The notes beneath the pieces were generated by a model that ran no database searches, was not told the origin of the DNA, and worked only from the letters and a program-made list of their open reading frames with translations. Below are positions 1 through 40,572 of a stretch of 40,572 nt of DNA, one piece after another; position 1 is the first letter of the stretch; each line of letters starts with the position of its first letter. Origin of the DNA: a virus. The DNA is taken from positions 1-40,572 of IMG/VR virus record IMGVR_UViG_3300049733_000051. One strand, written 5' to 3'. Position numbers and translations under genes: made by a program.

Positions 1-328
1 CCGCGATGCCCTCGCTGCCCGCGCTGCCCGCGCTGCCCTCGCTGCCCGCGATGCCCGCGATGCCCGCGATGCCCTCGCTGCCCGCGATGCCCGCGATGCC
101 CTCGATGCCCGCGCTGCCCGCGCTGCCCGCGCTGCCCTCGCTGCCCGCGCTGCCCTCGCTGCCCGCGATGCCCGCGATGCCCGCGCTGCCCTCGATGCCC
201 TCGATGCCCGCGCTGCCCTCGATGCCCGCGATGCCCGCGCTGCCCGCGCTGCCCGCGCTGCCCTCGCTGCCCGCGATGCCCGCGCTGCCCTCGATGCCCG
301 CGATGCCCTCGATGCCCGCGATGCCCGC
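1..328 (+). repeat. Left part of 9-bp coding repeat tract
   Basis: Thirty-six tandem 9-bp units fill 5-328, preceded by a partial unit. Each unit reads G-M-T-G-C-C-C-K-C, where only two bases vary (A/C at base 2, G/T at base 8). In the frame that continues into the downstream protein the unit encodes Asp/Ala-Ala-Arg/Leu. The same tract closes the other end of the window. It is in-frame coding sequence, not an intergenic satellite. Confidence 0.95.
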
Positions 329-988
329 GCCTTACATCGATTCGCGTCGTGGTGTGTCCATCGCGGCTGGTGGTGGTACTCGTGGGATTTGTCTTGGATC
401 ACGACCACGCTCATCGGGAGCCAGCAGACTGGCGTCACGATTCCGTGGTCGCGGCCCGTGTTCGAGGCCTACGTCGCGGGCGCGTGGATGTTGTTCTGGA
501 CGGAGGACACGCTGTATTGGGTGGCGAAACCGCGTATCCATGTGGAGCACGTGGGCGATCAGCGGCGTCTGCACTGTGAGACGGGGCCAGCCGTGGAGTC
601 CGACGTGGAGGACCTCTACTTCTGGCACGGCGTCTTGGTGCCGTCGTTTGCGGTGCTGCGCCCTGATCTCATCGAGCCCGCGCATGTGCAGCAGGAGGAG
701 AACGCGGAAGTCCGGCGCGTGCTGATCGAGCGCATGGGATGGGACCGCTGGCTGACGCAGAGCGGTGCCGTGCCGGTGCAGTCGGATCGCTTCGGTGATC
801 TCTATCGCGTGGAGATGGACGGTGCGGTCCTGGGCGTCGCGGTGGTGACAAACAGCACGCCAGAGCCGGATGGGTCAATCAAGAAGTACGCACTCCTGGT
901 GCCGAGCGAGCACGAGACGTGTCACAGCGCCGTGGCGTCCACGTTTGGGTTGACGGCAGCGCAGTACTGTCCAGTGGTGGAGACGTAA
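2..988 (+). CDS. DUF6745-type protein, C-terminal part (spans contig ends)
   Basis: This is the 3' part of a gene whose start lies at the right end of the window. The open frame runs through the Asp/Ala-Ala-Arg/Leu repeats to 328, then through a Trp-rich segment (RGWWWYSWDLSWI) and a C-terminal domain with LHCETGPAVE, LYFWHGVLVP and NAEVRRVLIERMG. I recognise these as the signature of DUF6745 proteins, which occur in phage and bacterial genomes and have no known function. An internal ATG at 389 could start a shorter product, but coding clearly continues upstream. The stop at 986-988 abuts the next gene's GTG. Family assignment is from memory of motif patterns; the function is unknown. Confidence 0.85.
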   Translation, partial: RDALAARAARAALAARDARDARDALAARDARDALDARAARAARAALAARAALAARDARDARAALDALDARAALDARDARAARAARAALAARDARAALDARDALDARDARALHRFASWCVHRGWWWYSWDLSWITTTLIGSQQTGVTIPWSRPVFEAYVAGAWMLFWTEDTLYWVAKPRIHVEHVGDQRRLHCETGPAVESDVEDLYFWHGVLVPSFAVLRPDLIEPAHVQQEENAEVRRVLIERMGWDRWLTQSGAVPVQSDRFGDLYRVEMDGAVLGVAVVTNSTPEPDGSIKKYALLVPSEHETCHSAVASTFGLTAAQYCPVVET

Positions 989-1435
989 GTGTCCGTCTCC
1001 GATCTCTTCGCGTGGTCTACGCCGATGTTCAAGCATCAGCAAGCCACCCGTGTGGATGCGCGATTGGAACGCGAGGCCCACGCCGCCAAGGACGAGCGCC
1101 GCTGGAACGCCGAGATCGACGCGCGAGATGGCCGGCAATGTCGGGCCTGCGGCAAGCACACGGACCCGGACGCGACAGGACTCCTGAGAGGGCATCGGGC
1201 GCACATCGTGTATGCGAGCGCGGGGGGCAGCATGGAGCCGAGCAACAGGGTCACACTCTGTGCCAAAGACCATTCTGCCGAGCACAAGGACGACCTGCGA
1301 TTCACGCCACTGGGCGGGCCATACGAAGGCGTGGACGCGAATCAGGGCATGGAATTTTGGCGCAGGGATGCTGAGGCTGGGTACTTCTATTTGTCGCGGC
1401 GAGAGCTGGCGCCGCATGTGGTGGAGAAGGATTGA
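989..1435 (+). CDS. HNH endonuclease
   Basis: A 148-residue protein with GTG start directly after the preceding stop; ATG at 1025 is an alternative. The HNH fold is visible: a CxxC zinc knuckle (C51, C54), the GHRAHIV segment (H69, H72) and a C-terminal EPSNRVTLCAKDH-x3-H block (N86, C91, H95, H99). Family members nick or cut DNA with a metal ion. Phages use them in packaging, as homing enzymes or against competing DNA. It lies away from the terminase here, so a packaging role is less certain. It is not a typical free-standing intron endonuclease because the gene order around it is tight. Confidence 0.8.
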   Translation: MSVSDLFAWSTPMFKHQQATRVDARLEREAHAAKDERRWNAEIDARDGRQCRACGKHTDPDATGLLRGHRAHIVYASAGGSMEPSNRVTLCAKDHSAEHKDDLRFTPLGGPYEGVDANQGMEFWRRDAEAGYFYLSRRELAPHVVEKD

Positions 1436-4840: not shown

Positions 4841-4888
4841 ATGGCTGATAAACGATCATATCCAATATCGACCCGGAGGCTTAAATGA
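4841..4888 (+). CDS. 15-residue leader peptide
   Basis: A short ORF (MADKRSYPISTRRLK) is preceded by GGGGAGG with ideal spacing, and its stop overlaps the replication initiator start as ATGA. It uses codons rare in this GC-rich genome (CGA, TCA, CCA, ATA, AGG, CTT, AAA). The initiator's own ribosome site (CGGAGG) lies inside it, so ribosome movement here would set initiator translation. Read as a leader peptide; no homologue is known to me. Confidence 0.5.
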   Translation: MADKRSYPISTRRLK

Positions 4889-5688
4889 GCTACGTCCGAG
4901 TCGATTCCTCAGTCCGCACCAACCGCAAATTCCTCCAGGCTGGACCGGCCGCGTCGTGGCTCTGGCTCTGTGGCACCGCCTACTGTCAGGAGACGCTGAC
5001 GGACGGGTTCATTCCGTTCGAAGCACTCCGTTATCTCGGCGTCGAGCAACCGAAGCCGCTGATCGTCAAGTTAGTCAGGGCGCGATTATGGGAGGAGGTT
5101 GATGGCGGCTGGCGCGTCCACGACTATCTCGAGCACAACAAGTCAGCCGCAGACATCAAAACCATCAAAGAAGAAAAACGAAACTACGGGAAGAAGGGAG
5201 GCGAAGCATCTGGGCGAAGCAGAGTGCTGAAGCAAAGTGCTTCGGATGATTCAAGCACTCTGCTTAACCAGACGGTGAACCCGGTAGTAGCTGTAGCTGT
5301 AGCTGCTCCGGTGGTTGATGTTCTGGAAGGGGGTTCTCAGGGGGAAACCCTTCCGCCGCTCGACGTGTGGCTGCGCGAGTTGCAGCGGCAGTATCCCGAG
5401 CAGCGGGTCACGATCGGGCATCTCACGGAATCGGCGTTTCATCAGCAATTTCTGGAGGATCCGCGGCCTGCTGACGTGGTGTGGCGGGACATGCTCGAGG
5501 GCCTGACGAGCCAGAAGGGCGGCTACGAGTGGCGGGTTAAGGGCATGGTGCCATCGCTCGAGAAGTGGCTCCGCGAAGGCCGTTGGCGTCAGCGGCACGA
5601 CGAAGCGCCGGTGTCTGCGGTGGTCAGCGAGAAGACCTCAAGGACGCTCACGGCCGCCGCGGAGTTCATCAAGGGAGGCCGCTCGTGA
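4885..5688 (+). CDS. Phage replication initiator (O/DnaD-like)
   Basis: A 267-residue protein. Residues ~1-90 form a winged helix typical of phage replisome organisers (SSVRTNRKFLQAGPAASWLWLC, ALRYLGV, RARLWEEVDGGWRVHDYLEHN). A basic then Ser/Ala/Val low-complexity linker follows (~95-150). The C-terminal domain (~150-245) contains LREGRWRQR. The protein should bind the origin and recruit the helicase loader encoded next. Phage initiator genes often contain their own origin, and iteron-like repeats lie in the linker-coding DNA here. It overlaps the loader gene by GTGA. Confidence 0.75.
   Translation: MSYVRVDSSVRTNRKFLQAGPAASWLWLCGTAYCQETLTDGFIPFEALRYLGVEQPKPLIVKLVRARLWEEVDGGWRVHDYLEHNKSAADIKTIKEEKRNYGKKGGEASGRSRVLKQSASDDSSTLLNQTVNPVVAVAVAAPVVDVLEGGSQGETLPPLDVWLRELQRQYPEQRVTIGHLTESAFHQQFLEDPRPADVVWRDMLEGLTSQKGGYEWRVKGMVPSLEKWLREGRWRQRHDEAPVSAVVSEKTSRTLTAAAEFIKGGRS
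5217..5265. other. Candidate replication origin iterons
   Basis: Three copies of AAGCARAGTGCT occur in 49 bases: direct copies at 5217-5228 and 5230-5241 (13-bp pitch) and an inverted copy at 5254-5265. Copies 2 and 3 extend to AAGCARAGTGCTT. They lie in the low-complexity linker of the initiator gene, just after an A-rich stretch (about 5156-5190). GTAGCT hexamer repeats follow at about 5286-5307. This matches the arrangement of lambdoid origins inside the initiator gene. Confidence 0.55.
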
Positions 5689-15297: not shown

Positions 15298-16005
15298 ATG
15301 CGAAGTGTCCACGGGTGGGAGAAAGCGCCTGTGGCTGTAAGTGTGCGGAGTGGGGTGTTTGTGGGGATCTCGACGGCGGAGGCGCCGCGGTATAGCGAGT
15401 TCTGGGTGGGTGTGTTGGGGTTGCGGGGCGTGGCGGAGGTGCGGATTGCGCACGGGACGAATGTCGCGGCGAACCGGAATGTGCTGACGGAGGCGTTTCT
15501 GGCGAGTGGGCGGGAGTGGGTGTTCTTCGCGGATGACGATCAGGTGTTTCGGCCGGACACGGTGGTGCGGTTGGTGGGGCATGGGGTGCCGGTGGTGTCT
15601 GGGCTGTATGTGTCGCGGCGGGTGCCGTTTCTGGGGCATGTGTTTGCGGGCGAGCGGAATGCGCATGGGGAGGCGCTGCGGCTGCGGTTGACGGGGGGGC
15701 ATCGCGGGCTGGTGCCGGTGGAGGCGACGGGGGCGGGGGCGTTGCTGGTGCATCGGCGGGTGGTGGAGGCGCTCGAGCCGCCGTATTGGCGACTGGGGCA
15801 GATCCAGCCGGAGGCGTGGGGGGACGACATTGATTTGTGTCGGCGGGTGCGGGCGGCGGGGTTTGAGATTGTGGTGGACGTGGAGACGTGGGTAGGGCAC
15901 AAGCGATCGGTGACGCTCTGGCCGACGCGGACGGCGGAGGGGTGGGGGACGTCGATTGTGGCGGAGCAGTGGGAGATCGGACGGATCCCGGTACCGGATG
16001 CCTAG
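15298..16005 (+). CDS. GT-A fold glycosyltransferase
   Basis: A 235-residue protein. The GT-A/family-2-like core shows WVFFADDDQVFRPDTVVRL (DDD at 79-81, metal/nucleotide-sugar binding) and WGDDIDLCRRVRAAGFEIVVDVETWVGH (acidic pocket at 175-179, H201). This is the form common in phages and GT-A enzymes acting on host or virion glycans. GAGGAAAA directly precedes the ATG. It separates the small terminase candidate from the large terminase, an uncommon position. Codons end overwhelmingly in G, as in the next gene. The sugar and acceptor are unknown. Confidence 0.75.
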   Translation: MRSVHGWEKAPVAVSVRSGVFVGISTAEAPRYSEFWVGVLGLRGVAEVRIAHGTNVAANRNVLTEAFLASGREWVFFADDDQVFRPDTVVRLVGHGVPVVSGLYVSRRVPFLGHVFAGERNAHGEALRLRLTGGHRGLVPVEATGAGALLVHRRVVEALEPPYWRLGQIQPEAWGDDIDLCRRVRAAGFEIVVDVETWVGHKRSVTLWPTRTAEGWGTSIVAEQWEIGRIPVPDA

Positions 16006-17464
16006 TCCGCTGGCGTTCACGGTGAATGGGGAGGTGTTTTACGACCCGCATCCGGGGCGGCAGGCGGAGATTCTGGCGTTATTGCGGCGGCGGGTCGCGA
16101 CGGAGGAGGCGGCGCCGCGGAACGTGTTCATTCGGGGGAATCGGGGTGGGGGGAAGAGCCGGTTGGTGCGGGCGTTTCTGCATGCGTGTGCGTTGGCGTT
16201 TCCGGGGTTCAAGTATGTGGTGGTGCGGCGGAACATGCCGGACTTGAACAGCAACCATTTGATTTACCTGGACGGGGAGATGCGGCGGTTGGGTGGGGAC
16301 TATGTGCAGACGCCGTTCCCGACGTGCCGGTATCGGAATGGGAGCCTGGGGTTTTACCGGCAGTGTGAGGACTTGAAGGACGTCGAGAAGATCGTCGGGT
16401 CGGAGGCGGCGGTGCACTTTGTGGATGAGGCGCCGCAGATTGCGTGGGAGCAGTTGCGGACGATGGCGCCGTCGCTGCGGGTGCCGAAGTTGGCGGATGG
16501 GCGGCAGCCGTACCGGACGATGTCGATTTACGGCGGGAACCCGATTGGGGAATCGATTGAGGAGTTGGACCGGTATTGCGTCGAGAAGGACGTGAGCCGG
16601 GAGGACGACCCGGAGTATGACCCGGCGGATTGGGCGACGGTGGAGCTCAAGCTGGAGGACAACCCGTCGTTGGATCCGGTGGAGTACCGGAAGCAGTTTG
16701 CGGGGGTGCCGGCGCATTTCCGGGCGGCGTGGGTGGATGGGGTCCGGATGGACGCGCGGACCTTGTTCCAGGTGCAGAAGACGAAGGACGGGCAGCCGTA
16801 TCACTACATCCAGGAGTTGCCGAAGGTGGCCGGGGTGCCGCTGCTGAAGGTGCCGTGGCTGCAGGTGTATCGGGCGTTTGACATGGGGTTTTTCCCGGAT
16901 CCGGCGGTGTGTGTCTGGCTGGCCGTGGTGGGGAAGCGGATTATCGCGATTCACGAGGGGACGTGGTTCAAGACGGTCGCCAAGGATTTGGCGGCGAAGT
17001 TGATCGAGACGCAGCGGGAGCTCGTGGGGGAGACGCCGTGTGTCATGACCTATGTGGACCCGCAGATTGACGTCCGGACGGGCTCGGATACGGTGACGGT
17101 GATGGATACCTTGGAGATGGCCGGGGTGCCGTGCGAGGCGTCGATCAATGACCGGGTGCTGTATGCGGACGCGATTCATGGGTTGCTCGGGGAGGAAGTC
17201 GAGCCGGGGGTGCCGCGGTTTCAGGTGTATGAGCCGGGGTGCCCGATGCTGGCGCGGTATCTCCCCAAGATGCGGTGGGACGAAAAGAACCCGCGGAAGA
17301 TGGCGGATCACCGGTGGGACCACTGGATTGTGGCGCTGGCGTATTTCGCGATCTCGAGCGGCGTGTTGGCGATGAGCAGTGAGAGTCGATCGGCGGCGGA
17401 GCCGATCTGGATGCAGTGGATGCGCGAGGCCGACGGGCGTCCGCGCGGGAGAGCACGAGCATGA
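15998..17464 (+). CDS. terL: Terminase large subunit
   Basis: A 488-residue packaging motor. ATPase: a Walker A-like RGNRGGGKS (K53), Walker B VHFVDEAP (141-146, D143/E144) and a coupling region near 178-185 (YGGNP). Nuclease: acidic residues in RAFDMGFFPDP (D295), YVDPQID (D354) and HRWDHWIVALAY (D441), fitting an RNase H-like resolvase fold. The enzyme docks on the portal, cuts concatemers and pumps DNA using ATP. The start overlaps the glycosyltransferase end; the stop overlaps the scaffold candidate (ATGA). Third codon positions are strongly G-biased. Confidence 0.9.
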   Translation: MPSPLAFTVNGEVFYDPHPGRQAEILALLRRRVATEEAAPRNVFIRGNRGGGKSRLVRAFLHACALAFPGFKYVVVRRNMPDLNSNHLIYLDGEMRRLGGDYVQTPFPTCRYRNGSLGFYRQCEDLKDVEKIVGSEAAVHFVDEAPQIAWEQLRTMAPSLRVPKLADGRQPYRTMSIYGGNPIGESIEELDRYCVEKDVSREDDPEYDPADWATVELKLEDNPSLDPVEYRKQFAGVPAHFRAAWVDGVRMDARTLFQVQKTKDGQPYHYIQELPKVAGVPLLKVPWLQVYRAFDMGFFPDPAVCVWLAVVGKRIIAIHEGTWFKTVAKDLAAKLIETQRELVGETPCVMTYVDPQIDVRTGSDTVTVMDTLEMAGVPCEASINDRVLYADAIHGLLGEEVEPGVPRFQVYEPGCPMLARYLPKMRWDEKNPRKMADHRWDHWIVALAYFAISSGVLAMSSESRSAAEPIWMQWMREADGRPRGRARA

Positions 17465-18565: not shown

Positions 18566-19507
18566 ATGGCAGTTCCATTTACCCAACTCGTGGCCTCCAC
18601 CTTCGATGCGGTGGCCAACGAGAAGAACAAGGCGGCCGACCAGTGGTCGGATTCGTCCTTCCTGAATCACCTCGAGAAAAAGGGCGGGGTCAAGCGCATC
18701 GCGGGCGGCGCCACGCTGCAGATGTCGCTCGACTACCGCGTGAACTCCGGCGCGGATTTCCTCGCGACGGACATCACCCCGACCTCCACCAGCAAGACCG
18801 ACATCCTGACGGCGACCGGCCCGTCGTGGGCCACGCTCGTGGTGCCGACGAACTGGACGTTCACGGATGAGGCACTGAACTCCGACACCAACCAGAAGGT
18901 CGATCTGCTGACCTCGCTGGCCGACAACGCGATGACCTCGCACGATTACACGATCGAGGCGGGGATGTTCGCGTCAGCCGCAACGGACGGCTTTGCCACC
19001 TTCGAAGAGCTGTTCACGGAGAACGGCGAAGGCACCGTGCAGGGCATCGTCTCCGGCACGGAAACGTGGTGGAAGAACCAGTTTCTCGATTGGGACACGC
19101 ACACGGGCGCGACCCTGCTCGCGGACTACAACACGCTGTACTTCCGCTGCGCGAAGGGATCGGACGGGCGTCAGCCGAACGTGGTCGTCACGAACTCCAC
19201 GCTGTACGGCGCGTTCCTCGGTGCGAACCAGGCCAATCAGCGGTTCCTCGAGGCCACCGGCACCACGCTGAAGTACGTCAAGTTGATGAACGCCGACTTT
19301 ATCTATTCGGCGGCCATCACCACGTCGCAGGATTCCGCGTGGATGTTCAACACCAATGACACGGCGCTCTTCGTCGTGAACAACGCCTTCCGCAAGCGGC
19401 GCGATCCGATCGACTTCTCGGCCGCAGCCATGGTCAACATGAAACTCTTCTCAGTGCTCCAGCTCGCGACCCGTAACCGGTCGCGCGGCGGGAAGCTCTT
19501 CACGTAG
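18566..19507 (+). CDS. Major capsid protein
   Basis: A 313-residue protein with the composition and order of an HK97-fold coat protein. It has an N-terminal helix (TFDAVANEKNKAADQW), an E-loop-like region with DYRVNSGADFLATDI, and an A-domain ending (DSAWMFNTNDTALFVVNNAFRKRRDP). It lies directly after the scaffold candidate and before a decoration candidate. No prohead protease gene precedes it, so maturation probably occurs without cleavage, as in T7 or P22. Strong regulation is suggested by the palindromes and inverted repeat upstream. Confidence 0.75.
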   Translation: MAVPFTQLVASTFDAVANEKNKAADQWSDSSFLNHLEKKGGVKRIAGGATLQMSLDYRVNSGADFLATDITPTSTSKTDILTATGPSWATLVVPTNWTFTDEALNSDTNQKVDLLTSLADNAMTSHDYTIEAGMFASAATDGFATFEELFTENGEGTVQGIVSGTETWWKNQFLDWDTHTGATLLADYNTLYFRCAKGSDGRQPNVVVTNSTLYGAFLGANQANQRFLEATGTTLKYVKLMNADFIYSAAITTSQDSAWMFNTNDTALFVVNNAFRKRRDPIDFSAAAMVNMKLFSVLQLATRNRSRGGKLFT

Positions 19508-37162: not shown

Positions 37163-37386
37163 GCGTCCATCCCTTTCGCAAGCCGGAGGTCGATCCGTGG
37201 CCGTCTGTGGAGGACGCCCGCGAGGACCTGTGTCCCTGGTGCGAAGCGATGCCGACAGAGCGGCACACGCCGCCGTGTCCGCTCTACGCCCCGGCCTTTG
37301 ACGAACTCTCGTGGTGTGACGCGTGCGGGACTGAATTTTTGACACGGTGTGCGTGCGATGGGCACGACGACTGCGAGGAGAGGTAA
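37159..37386 (+). CDS. Small zinc-binding protein
   Basis: A 75-residue protein with two metal clusters: CPWCEA...HTPPCP and CDACGTEFLTRCACDGHDDC. The rest is acidic. It shares one base with the Sak4-like gene start (TAATG). It probably binds zinc and acts as an adaptor; no named family is recognised. Confidence 0.6.
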   Translation: MSVHPFRKPEVDPWPSVEDAREDLCPWCEAMPTERHTPPCPLYAPAFDELSWCDACGTEFLTRCACDGHDDCEER

Positions 37387-38429
37387 TGGCTGGATTTCAA
37401 CGCGCGAAGGCTGAACAGGCCGCGATCAAGATGGGCATCTATGGACCTCCGGGGGCGGGGAAGACGTTTACCTCGCTGCTGATGGCCGAAGGACTCGCCG
37501 CGCTGAGCGGCAAGCGGATCGCCTACGTCGATACCGAGCGCGGGACGGACTTCTACTGCAAGGCGGTGGCGAATCGCGCGGTGCATCCGGAGGCGTTCGA
37601 CTTCGACGCACTCTATACGCGCAGCTTGACCGAAGTCGTGGCGGCGGTGAAGGCGCTCAAGCCGGACGTCTACGGCGTCGTGGTCATTGATTCCATTACG
37701 CATCTCTGGGAGGCCGCGATGGCCGCCTACACCGGAGCCAAGACGAAGCAGGGCGGGATTCCCATGCACGCATGGGGACGCATCAAGCGCCCGTACAAGG
37801 AACTGATGACGCTGCTGCTCAACTCGCCGATGCACGTCTTCATCCTTGGCCGTCAGGGCAACGTGTTTGAGGAAGACGAAGAAACCGAGGAACTCAAGAA
37901 GGTCGGCGTCAAGATGAAGGCCGAGGGCGAGACGCCGTACGAGCCGCACGTCCTCATTCGGATGGAGTCTGAGCGCCCGCAGAAGACCAACGAGGTCGCC
38001 ACGATCTACGCCTACGCCGAGAAGGATCGCACGGGTGTACTGTCAGGGCGCTCGTTCGCGAACCCGACGTACAAGACGCTCATCGAACCCATCATCGGAC
38101 TACTGGGTGGCACACAGGCCCGTACGGCCACTGAAGACGAGGCCGCCGTCATGGATGCCGAGGCGCTCGAGCGCGATGACCGGGACCGCGCCTCACGGTC
38201 CAAAGACCTGTTACGCACCATGAGCGCCAAGATCGACCTCGCTTCCACAGTGGCTGACGTGCGCGGGGTTGGGAAGGAAATCACGCCCAAGCTCAAGGCG
38301 CAGATGCTGCCGGTCGATGTCGCGTTGCTGCGCGAGCACTACTTGGCCCGAGAGAACGCCATCAAGGCGCAAGCGGCTGAGAACAACAAACTCGACGCGG
38401 AGATCGCGTCTGGCGAAAAGGTGAACTAG
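37386..38429 (+). CDS. Sak4-like RecA-fold ATPase
   Basis: A 347-residue protein. Walker A GPPGAGKT (20-27), AYVDTERGTDFY (46-57) and Walker B VVVIDS (98-103) define the AAA_24/Sak4 type RecA-like ATPase that supports phage single-strand annealing and recombination. Residues ~150-220 add GRQGNVFEEDEETEELKKVGVKMKAEGETPYEPHVLIRME, typical for phage versions. The C-terminal third is helical and charged. It is coupled by overlap to the NinB-like gene, supporting a recombination role. Confidence 0.8.
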   Translation: MAGFQRAKAEQAAIKMGIYGPPGAGKTFTSLLMAEGLAALSGKRIAYVDTERGTDFYCKAVANRAVHPEAFDFDALYTRSLTEVVAAVKALKPDVYGVVVIDSITHLWEAAMAAYTGAKTKQGGIPMHAWGRIKRPYKELMTLLLNSPMHVFILGRQGNVFEEDEETEELKKVGVKMKAEGETPYEPHVLIRMESERPQKTNEVATIYAYAEKDRTGVLSGRSFANPTYKTLIEPIIGLLGGTQARTATEDEAAVMDAEALERDDRDRASRSKDLLRTMSAKIDLASTVADVRGVGKEITPKLKAQMLPVDVALLREHYLARENAIKAQAAENNKLDAEIASGEKVN

Positions 38430-39801: not shown

Positions 39802-40137
39802 ATGACGAAGCGAGATGTACGGGAACAGGGCCGGATCATTCTGGCCCACGGTGAGGCGACTGGACACTGCCATGAAGTCGTGGCGGTGGACACCGGCCTG
39901 CCGCCGTCGATGGAGGCGGCGCAGTTTTTCGAGGTTGATGGCCTGCGGACGTTGATCGTGCTGGCGCCGTGCGAACTGCGGCATCAGGAGCACGCGCCGA
40001 TCGCGCTGGATCCAGCGTCACCGATCATGTGGCGGCAGGGCGATGTCCTTGGGATCCCGACTGCGCCTGGAACATGGCGGATCGAGCGGCAGCGCGAACA
40101 GTACTCACCGAACGAGTGGCGTCAGGTCGCGGATTGA
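39802..40137 (+). CDS. Conserved phage protein, GHxH/EH family
   Basis: A 111-residue protein. The motifs HGEATGHCHEVV, LRTLIVLAPCELRHQEHAPIAL and WRIERQREQYSPNEWRQVAD form a pattern I have seen in widespread phage and bacterial genes next to DUF6745 proteins. His and Glu residues (H46-type GHCH, EH) could bind metal. No reaction is known. It precedes the repeat gene by two bases. Confidence 0.6.
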   Translation: MTKRDVREQGRIILAHGEATGHCHEVVAVDTGLPPSMEAAQFFEVDGLRTLIVLAPCELRHQEHAPIALDPASPIMWRQGDVLGIPTAPGTWRIERQREQYSPNEWRQVAD

Positions 40138-40139
40138 CA

Positions 40140-40572
40140 ATGGCCCGCACGCCCGACTTCGATCGCTACGTGGCAGCCTGTGACTATCCAGGCACCTTGG
40201 ACGAGGCCGTGGTGACGGCATCGCTCCAAGACTATCTTGGCGCGCTTGGCGTCTCGCGAGTCGTGCGCCGCCTGCCGGCGGGATGGGATCTGGGCACTGA
40301 GGAACCACTCAGGCGGTCTGTGTGGACCGTGCTCGAGGACATCGCGAAACGCTGTGGGTGGCCCGCCAGCGATGCCCTCGATGCCCGCGATGCCCGCGCT
40401 GCCCTCGATGCCCTCGCTGCCCGCGCTGCCCTCGCTGCCCGCGATGCCCGCGATGCCCGCGCTGCCCGCGCTGCCCTCGCTGCCCGCGATGCCCGCGCTG
40501 CCCTCGATGCCCGCGATGCCCGCGATGCCCGCGATGCCCGCGATGCCCTCGCTGCCCGCGCTGCCCGCGCTG
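40140..40572 (+). CDS. DUF6745-type protein, N-terminal part (spans contig ends)
   Basis: This is the 5' part of the gene that continues at base 2 if the molecule is circular. ATG 40140 is followed by a ~77-residue domain (LDEAVVTASLQDYLGALGVSRVVRRLPAGWDLG, a helical segment seen in the same type of proteins), then by the Asp/Ala-Ala-Arg/Leu repeat from 40371 to the end. Joining the ends exactly would shift the frame by one base, because the repeat unit at the junction is one C short. The complete protein would be about 470 residues. Confidence 0.75.
   Translation, partial: MARTPDFDRYVAACDYPGTLDEAVVTASLQDYLGALGVSRVVRRLPAGWDLGTEEPLRRSVWTVLEDIAKRCGWPASDALDARDARAALDALAARAALAARDARDARAARAALAARDARAALDARDARDARDARDALAARAARA
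40371..40572 (+). repeat. Right part of 9-bp coding repeat tract
   Basis: Twenty-two complete 9-bp units (G-M-T-G-C-C-C-K-C) and four extra bases run to the end of the window. They encode (D/A)A(R/L) in the frame of the gene starting at 40140. Together with the left tract this gives about 59 units. Exact numbers are unreliable because assembly breaks inside the tract. Confidence 0.9.

What the first reader, a model, noticed from the sequence alone, without database searches (positions are those of the whole stretch)
40371..40572. Two-bit 9-bp repeat tract encoding (D/A)A(R/L), split across the contig ends
About 59 units vary only at two bases per unit (A/C and G/T), switching Asp/Ala and Arg/Leu independently, while all other bases are nearly invariant. 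A pure recombination tract would drift at other third positions too, so the near-perfect DNA identity suggests recent amplification, gene conversion or a selected DNA role. The encoded three-residue period within a phage protein could form a long helix or fibrous spacer with an adjustable charge pattern.
Basis: partly seen in the sequence, partly recalled or inferred. Interest (0 to 1): 0.65.

Follow-up and report, generated by a model that had tools for sequence, protein, structure and literature searches.

The report
Hypervariable two-letter repeat in phage proteins
A phage gene carries about 55 copies of a 9-letter DNA unit in which only two letters ever change, each switching an amino acid's charge on or off; about 90 distantly related virus genes of the same family carry the same kind of rewritable string, a pattern hard to explain without selection or targeted change at those positions.

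Summary
The window's ends share a 35-bp overlap inside the tract and join in frame into one 461-aa protein: N-terminal part, 55 units of G[A/C]TGCCC[G/T]C = (D/A)A(R/L), then DUF6745 (PF20530, E 3.5e-32). No base other than the two bits varies. The tract is a family hallmark: clade-1 arrays average 0.95 and 0.99 bit at the two codon-2 sites and at most 0.07 bit at silent sites. Silent bases are fixed within an array but differ between phages. Distant DUF6745 proteins have 12-bp units of the same design (44 arrays, 1,101 units). Near-identical M. abscessus prophages (99.98% flanks) carry different arrays. Recent amplification plus gene conversion explains the uniform frame, not the two near-maximal positions. 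The same switch (acid to small neutral; Arg to neutral) is made by different base changes in different phages, which points to protein-level selection. Best reading: a rewritable charge-patterned, probably helical, interaction or spacer domain, shuffled by unit-scale recombination. A diversity-generating retroelement is unlikely (no reverse transcriptase in 12 carriers). The function of DUF6745 is unknown; no paper on it was found.

The parts
39802..40137 (+). small upstream gene (111 aa, ends QREQYSPNEWRQVAD); its family precedes DUF6745 genes in bacteria and other phages
   Evidence: phrog_27831 E 5e-9; no Pfam hit
40140..40370 (+). N-terminal part (77 codons before the first whole unit) of the DUF6745 protein, ATG at 40140
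   Evidence: joined ORF; conserved ACxYPGxLDE..V..L..YL.ALG in relatives
40371..40572 (+). right part of the tract: 22 whole 9-bp units plus GCTG
1..328 (+). left part of the tract: 36 whole 9-bp units (5-328); bases 1-35 repeat 40538-40572
338..988 (+). C-terminal DUF6745 region and stop codon
   Evidence: PF20530 E 3.5e-32, profile 54-206; AlphaFold mean pLDDT 84
1..35 (+). terminal direct overlap, left copy
   Evidence: exact match to 40538-40572
40538..40572 (+). terminal direct overlap, right copy
   Evidence: exact match to 1-35

Best explanation
The tract encodes a tandem-repeat domain between a conserved N-terminal part and DUF6745. At DNA level the array is remodelled by unit-scale recombination or slippage, which changes unit number and order and keeps the frame bases uniform within each phage. 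At protein level one residue is fixed (Ala) and two are held polymorphic: acidic versus neutral at residue 1, Arg versus neutral at residue 3. Each phage therefore carries its own charge string on a probably helical rod, most likely a fast-changing interaction surface, or a spacer that must stay heterogeneous, presented by the DUF6745 protein. Shown: the sequence pattern, its recurrence, the turnover between near-identical prophages, the DUF6745 context. Inferred: helical form, selection as the cause, and the interaction role; the partner is unknown.
For: Pooled clade 1 (46 arrays, 1,488 units): minority amino-acid copies 579 and 660 at residues 1 and 3 against 7 at residue 2; minority silent copies 23, 12 and 16. 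The middle Ala codon is fixed as GCC, GCA, GCT or GCG in different phages. The switch is made by different changes: D/A by A-C, D/G by A-G, D/N by G-A; R/L, R/M and R/I by G-T, R/Q and R/H by G-A, R/S by C-A. Clade 2 with 12-bp units: 44 arrays, 1,101 units, 593 and 417 minority amino-acid copies against 33 silent in all. Turnover: prophiGD102-1 and L098 differ by 1 SNP in 5.3 kb of flank but have 45 and 18 units in different order. In a toy simulation equal rates give bit entropy 0.01-0.03; matching the data needs about 100-1000 times more change at the bits than at silent sites.
Against: No function or partner is shown. Some arrays use Gly, Trp, Asn and others, so charge alone is not the rule, and clade-2 residue 3 uses nearly every outcome of NGG. 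The simulations are simple single runs with arbitrary rates. Most arrays come from metagenome contigs, probably short-read assemblies, which cannot hold long exact repeats. The window's nearest relative L015 (99.99% over 14.2 kb) has the same first 14 units, so turnover is not seen in that pair. No unrelated coding minisatellites were analysed as a control.
Confidence: 0.5

Rival explanations
1. Length-variable helical spacer under a composition constraint only: any order of D/A and R/L works as long as the helix stays soluble and roughly charge-balanced. Recombination shuffles the units and no specific recognition is involved.
For: Arrays run from 8 to 76 units with no fixed order; charge is near balance on average (mean D fraction 0.57, R fraction 0.52); helix predicted.
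Against: In the toy simulation composition-only selection with block copying gave longer internal repeats (longest run 9-26 units) than the roughly 5 seen, and adjacent duplication of one or three units gave strongly positive lag-1 correlation, while the data are slightly negative. Clade 2 uses Trp and Gly, not just a charge balance.
Confidence: 0.27
2. A targeted mutation process strikes two bases per unit, for example a retroelement, a deaminase or a structure-dependent polymerase error.
For: Bits near maximal entropy with almost no silent change and near-random order. In arrays with CKC GMC the two bits are symmetric on the two strands around CG.
Against: No RVT_1 reverse transcriptase in 12 carriers, with positive controls ringing; the base changes differ between arrays (A-C, A-G, G-T, G-A, C-A), while the amino-acid outcome is similar.
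Confidence: 0.13
3. Ordinary recent amplification of a short seed that happened to hold the two polymorphisms, without selection.
For: Uniform silent bases; about a quarter of arrays show block duplication beyond shuffles; L023 and L024 differ by a clean 19-unit indel.
Against: The same two sites are polymorphic in about 90 arrays on different silent backgrounds and in two unit lengths; neutral sites should be equally variable.
Confidence: 0.07

Closest known systems
DUF6745 (Pfam PF20530) proteins of bacteria and phages
   Same: C-terminal domain, small upstream gene and place of a variable middle region
   Different: Streptomyces members have no tract; a Deinococcus member and a proteobacterial one have what reads as leucine-rich or other long repeats there; the phage members have 3- or 4-residue arrays
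Coding minisatellites / VNTR with concerted evolution
   Same: Uniform unit, length change between isolates, block indels
   Different: Variation confined to one or two non-silent positions per unit and kept near maximum across a whole superfamily
TALE-type repeat proteins (variable residue pairs in an invariant repeat; from general knowledge)
   Same: Two variable residues per otherwise fixed unit
   Different: Units of 3-4 rather than about 34 residues; no known target; no sequence relation found in Pfam scans
Diversity-generating retroelements (general knowledge)
   Same: Hypervariable positions in a phage protein
   Different: No reverse transcriptase found; change is not adenine-specific

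Membership tests
DUF6745 (PF20530) | Profile match over Pfam's gathering score (27 bits) | tested here: met
   111.8 bits, E 3.5e-32
Coding minisatellite (VNTR) | Head-to-tail units of uniform length in an open frame | tested here: met
Coding minisatellite (VNTR) | Copy number differs between near-identical isolates | tested here: inconclusive
   met in relatives: 45 vs 18 units with 99.98% flanks, 19-unit indel L023/L024; for the window itself only 14 units could be compared, identical
Diversity-generating retroelement target | Reverse transcriptase in the same element | tested here: not met
   0 of 12 carriers with PF00078, the window's record included
Diversity-generating retroelement target | Adenine-directed change with a template repeat | tested here: not met
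   scaffold adenines (CAG) never vary and variable bases include G/T and C/G/T; a template repeat was not searched for
TALE-type repeat | Repeats of about 34 residues forming a nucleic-acid-binding superhelix | tested here: not met
   units are 3 or 4 residues; nucleic-acid binding not testable here
Single alpha-helix rod | Stable isolated helix over the tract | tested here: inconclusive
   AlphaFold helix, pLDDT about 45-70 in the tract

The most novel reading that the evidence does not exclude
The arrays are a rewritable recognition code: each 3- or 4-residue unit presents one of a few side-chain pairs, the string determines which host partner the DUF6745 protein binds, and it is diversified by selection or a dedicated process. 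This would be a minimal-unit analogue of modular repeat recognition proteins, spread across many phages.
Probability: 0.17. Interest if true: 0.88.

Novelty: new variant of a known kind. Interest (0 to 1): 0.62.

Why it matters
About 90 phage and prophage arrays of an uncharacterised protein family show variation confined to one or two residues per 3-4-residue unit, with silent sites almost frozen. That is an unusually clean natural case in which selection or targeted change on repeat arrays can be separated from neutral homogenisation. If the string specifies interactions, it would be a very compact modular recognition system; if it is only a spacer, it still shows what a repeat must keep variable. 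Carriers include prophages of M. abscessus, for which many isolates exist, so direct tests are possible.

Tried and rejected
Chance: excluded by the exactness and length of the tract. Codon bias as the cause of uniform silent bases: rejected for the window, because residue 1 Ala is always GCT and residue 2 Ala always GCC. DGR: no reverse transcriptase. Known defence system: no PADLOC hit. Solved-structure relative of DUF6745: none by Foldseek in PDB (best E 0.21); in viral models only two other DUF6745 proteins are significant. Local charge coupling between neighbouring units: only weak signals (R-R lag 1 and lag 6 slightly negative), not pursued. Literature: no paper in the library names DUF6745, and searches on hypervariable tandem repeats in phages found nothing relevant. 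Exact C-flank of the window in other viral contigs: none. DUF6745 is rare in Pseudomonadota genomes (3 of 398).

Full report
The tract. The window begins and ends inside one array. Every whole unit (22 at 40371-40568, 36 at 5-328) is G[A/C]TGCCC[G/T]C, read as (D/A)-A-(R/L), with no exception at the other seven bases. Bases 1-35 equal 40538-40572, so the contig closes on itself within the array. Joined with that overlap removed, the frame from ATG 40140 runs through 55 units to the stop ending at 988 and gives 461 aa. Because the overlap lies in a repeat, 55 is best taken as a minimum. The joined protein ends in DUF6745. The contig is a tailed phage: large terminase at 15956-17464, major head protein at 18566-19507, replication initiator at 4885-5688, Sak4-like protein at 37347-38429.

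The family. A search with the C-terminal domains found 54 viral loci and one metagenome-assembled Caulobacteraceae contig with the same architecture. In the arrays the middle residue is almost always Ala, the first is mainly Asp or Ala, and the third is Arg or an uncharged residue (Leu, Gln, Met, Ser, Ile, rarely His or Gly). Over 50 arrays the mean entropy per base is 0.95 bit at the second base of codon 1 and 0.99 bit at the second base of codon 3. At the three silent third bases it is 0.07, 0.05 and 0.07 bit. With near-duplicates removed (46 arrays, 1,488 units), minority amino-acid copies are 579, 7 and 660 at residues 1, 2 and 3, and minority silent copies 23, 12 and 16. The silent bases are not the same everywhere: the consensus middle Ala codon is GCC in 25 arrays, GCA in 10, GCT in 6 and GCG in 5. 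Each lineage has therefore replaced its frame as a whole while keeping the two positions polymorphic.

A second clade. Mycobacterium phage prophiGD102-1 gp38, a spring-water siphovirus (MW202476) and further viral loci (60 found) carry DUF6745 with a related N-terminal part. Most have 12-bp units such as CAGCTC[G/C/T]GGG[A/G]C (QL-G/R/W-D/G), QV-W/R/G-D/A, SV-W/R/G-D/A or SSL-G/E/W/R. Across 44 arrays (1,101 units) the two scaffold residues, which were used to find the arrays and so cannot vary in amino acid, show only 25 silent minority copies. The variable residues show 593 and 417 amino-acid minority copies. One proteobacterial genome carries a QL-W/R-G/D array. A few members have no array (L110, L111, L113, L117-L121), as do the Streptomyces proteins. 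Deinococcus has leucine-rich-looking repeats in that place.

Turnover. prophiGD102-1 and L098 differ by one base in 2,766 upstream and none in 2,500 downstream, yet have 45 and 18 units in different order. L099, identical downstream, has at least 20. L100 (93.7% and 98.4% flanks) has 61 units whose order is no closer to prophiGD102-1 than a shuffle. L023 and L024 (99.3% flanks) differ by one clean 19-unit indel with a roughly 49-bp repeat at the junction. L037 and L039 (about 90% flanks) have unlike arrays. The window's own near-twin L015 (2 mismatches in 14,197 bp) keeps the same first 14 units before its contig ends. So turnover is fast in some lineages and not visible in this pair. Some of these assemblies are probably short-read and could be collapsed, so length differences need long reads.

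What the pattern requires. In about three quarters of arrays the order is as unrepetitive as a shuffle; the rest show block duplications. A toy simulation of copying and point change with equal rates at bits and silent sites gives bit entropy 0.01-0.03 and longest repeated runs of 45 or more units. Matching 0.95 bit, 0.02-0.04 silent bit and runs of about 5-6 needs 100 to 1000 times more effective change at the bits. Selection on composition alone keeps the entropy but leaves runs of 9-26 units. These are single runs with arbitrary rates and serve only as orientation. Either diversifying selection or targeted change at the bits is needed. Targeted change is less likely: no reverse transcriptase was found in 12 carriers, and the same residue switch is produced by different base changes in different phages. 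I infer protein-level selection.

Structure and context. AlphaFold on relative L020 gives a confident N-terminal part, helices through the tract with weak confidence, and a mixed alpha/beta C-terminal domain. The window's DUF6745 domain alone is modelled at mean pLDDT 84, without a convincing PDB match. A small gene whose product ends QRE[Y/W/Q]... lies upstream in the window, in 13 of 28 clade-1 loci and 12 of 46 clade-2 loci by a strict motif, and in Streptomyces, Skermanella, Deinococcus and Mycolicibacterium. In two Streptomyces records and one Deinococcus record the pair lies next to STM4011-STM4015-family genes. The biochemical role of neither protein is known.

Verdict. The feature is a superfamily-wide hypervariable repeat design. 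The mechanism proposed (recombination shuffles, selection keeps two residues diverse) is the best supported; the interaction role is an inference.

Noticed in passing
window 39802-40137: Small gene of the 'QRE..' family, a conserved partner of DUF6745 genes in phages and bacteria; no Pfam family; phrog_27831 of unknown function.
   Followed up: partly
window 989-1435: HNH endonuclease-like gene directly downstream of the DUF6745 gene (PF01844 E 5e-5).
   Followed up: no
L093 1868-2869; L097: DUF6745 fused to leucine-rich-looking or other long repeats in Deinococcus taeanensis and a proteobacterial genome, so the middle of the protein is a repeat region in some cellular members too.
   Followed up: no
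L089 (Nocardia farcinica plasmid 3) 1-1932: QV-W/G/R-A/D array whose frame is broken by shifts between N-part and DUF6745; either a decayed gene or assembly errors in the repeat.
   Followed up: no
L107, L115, L139, L149: Variant alphabets: arrays using Asp/Tyr/Arg/His/Gly at one position (NRC codons), i.e. two variable bases in one codon.
   Followed up: no
L056 and L064 (contig IMGVR_UViG_3300031820_000004, both ends): One phage contig carries two DUF6745 genes with different arrays (R/L type and R/M type), near its two ends.
   Followed up: no
L095 (Lactococcus plasmid pFI430) 1978-2448: Unrelated-looking TPIL tetrapeptide repeat without variable positions, a possible control for the variability argument.
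   Followed up: no
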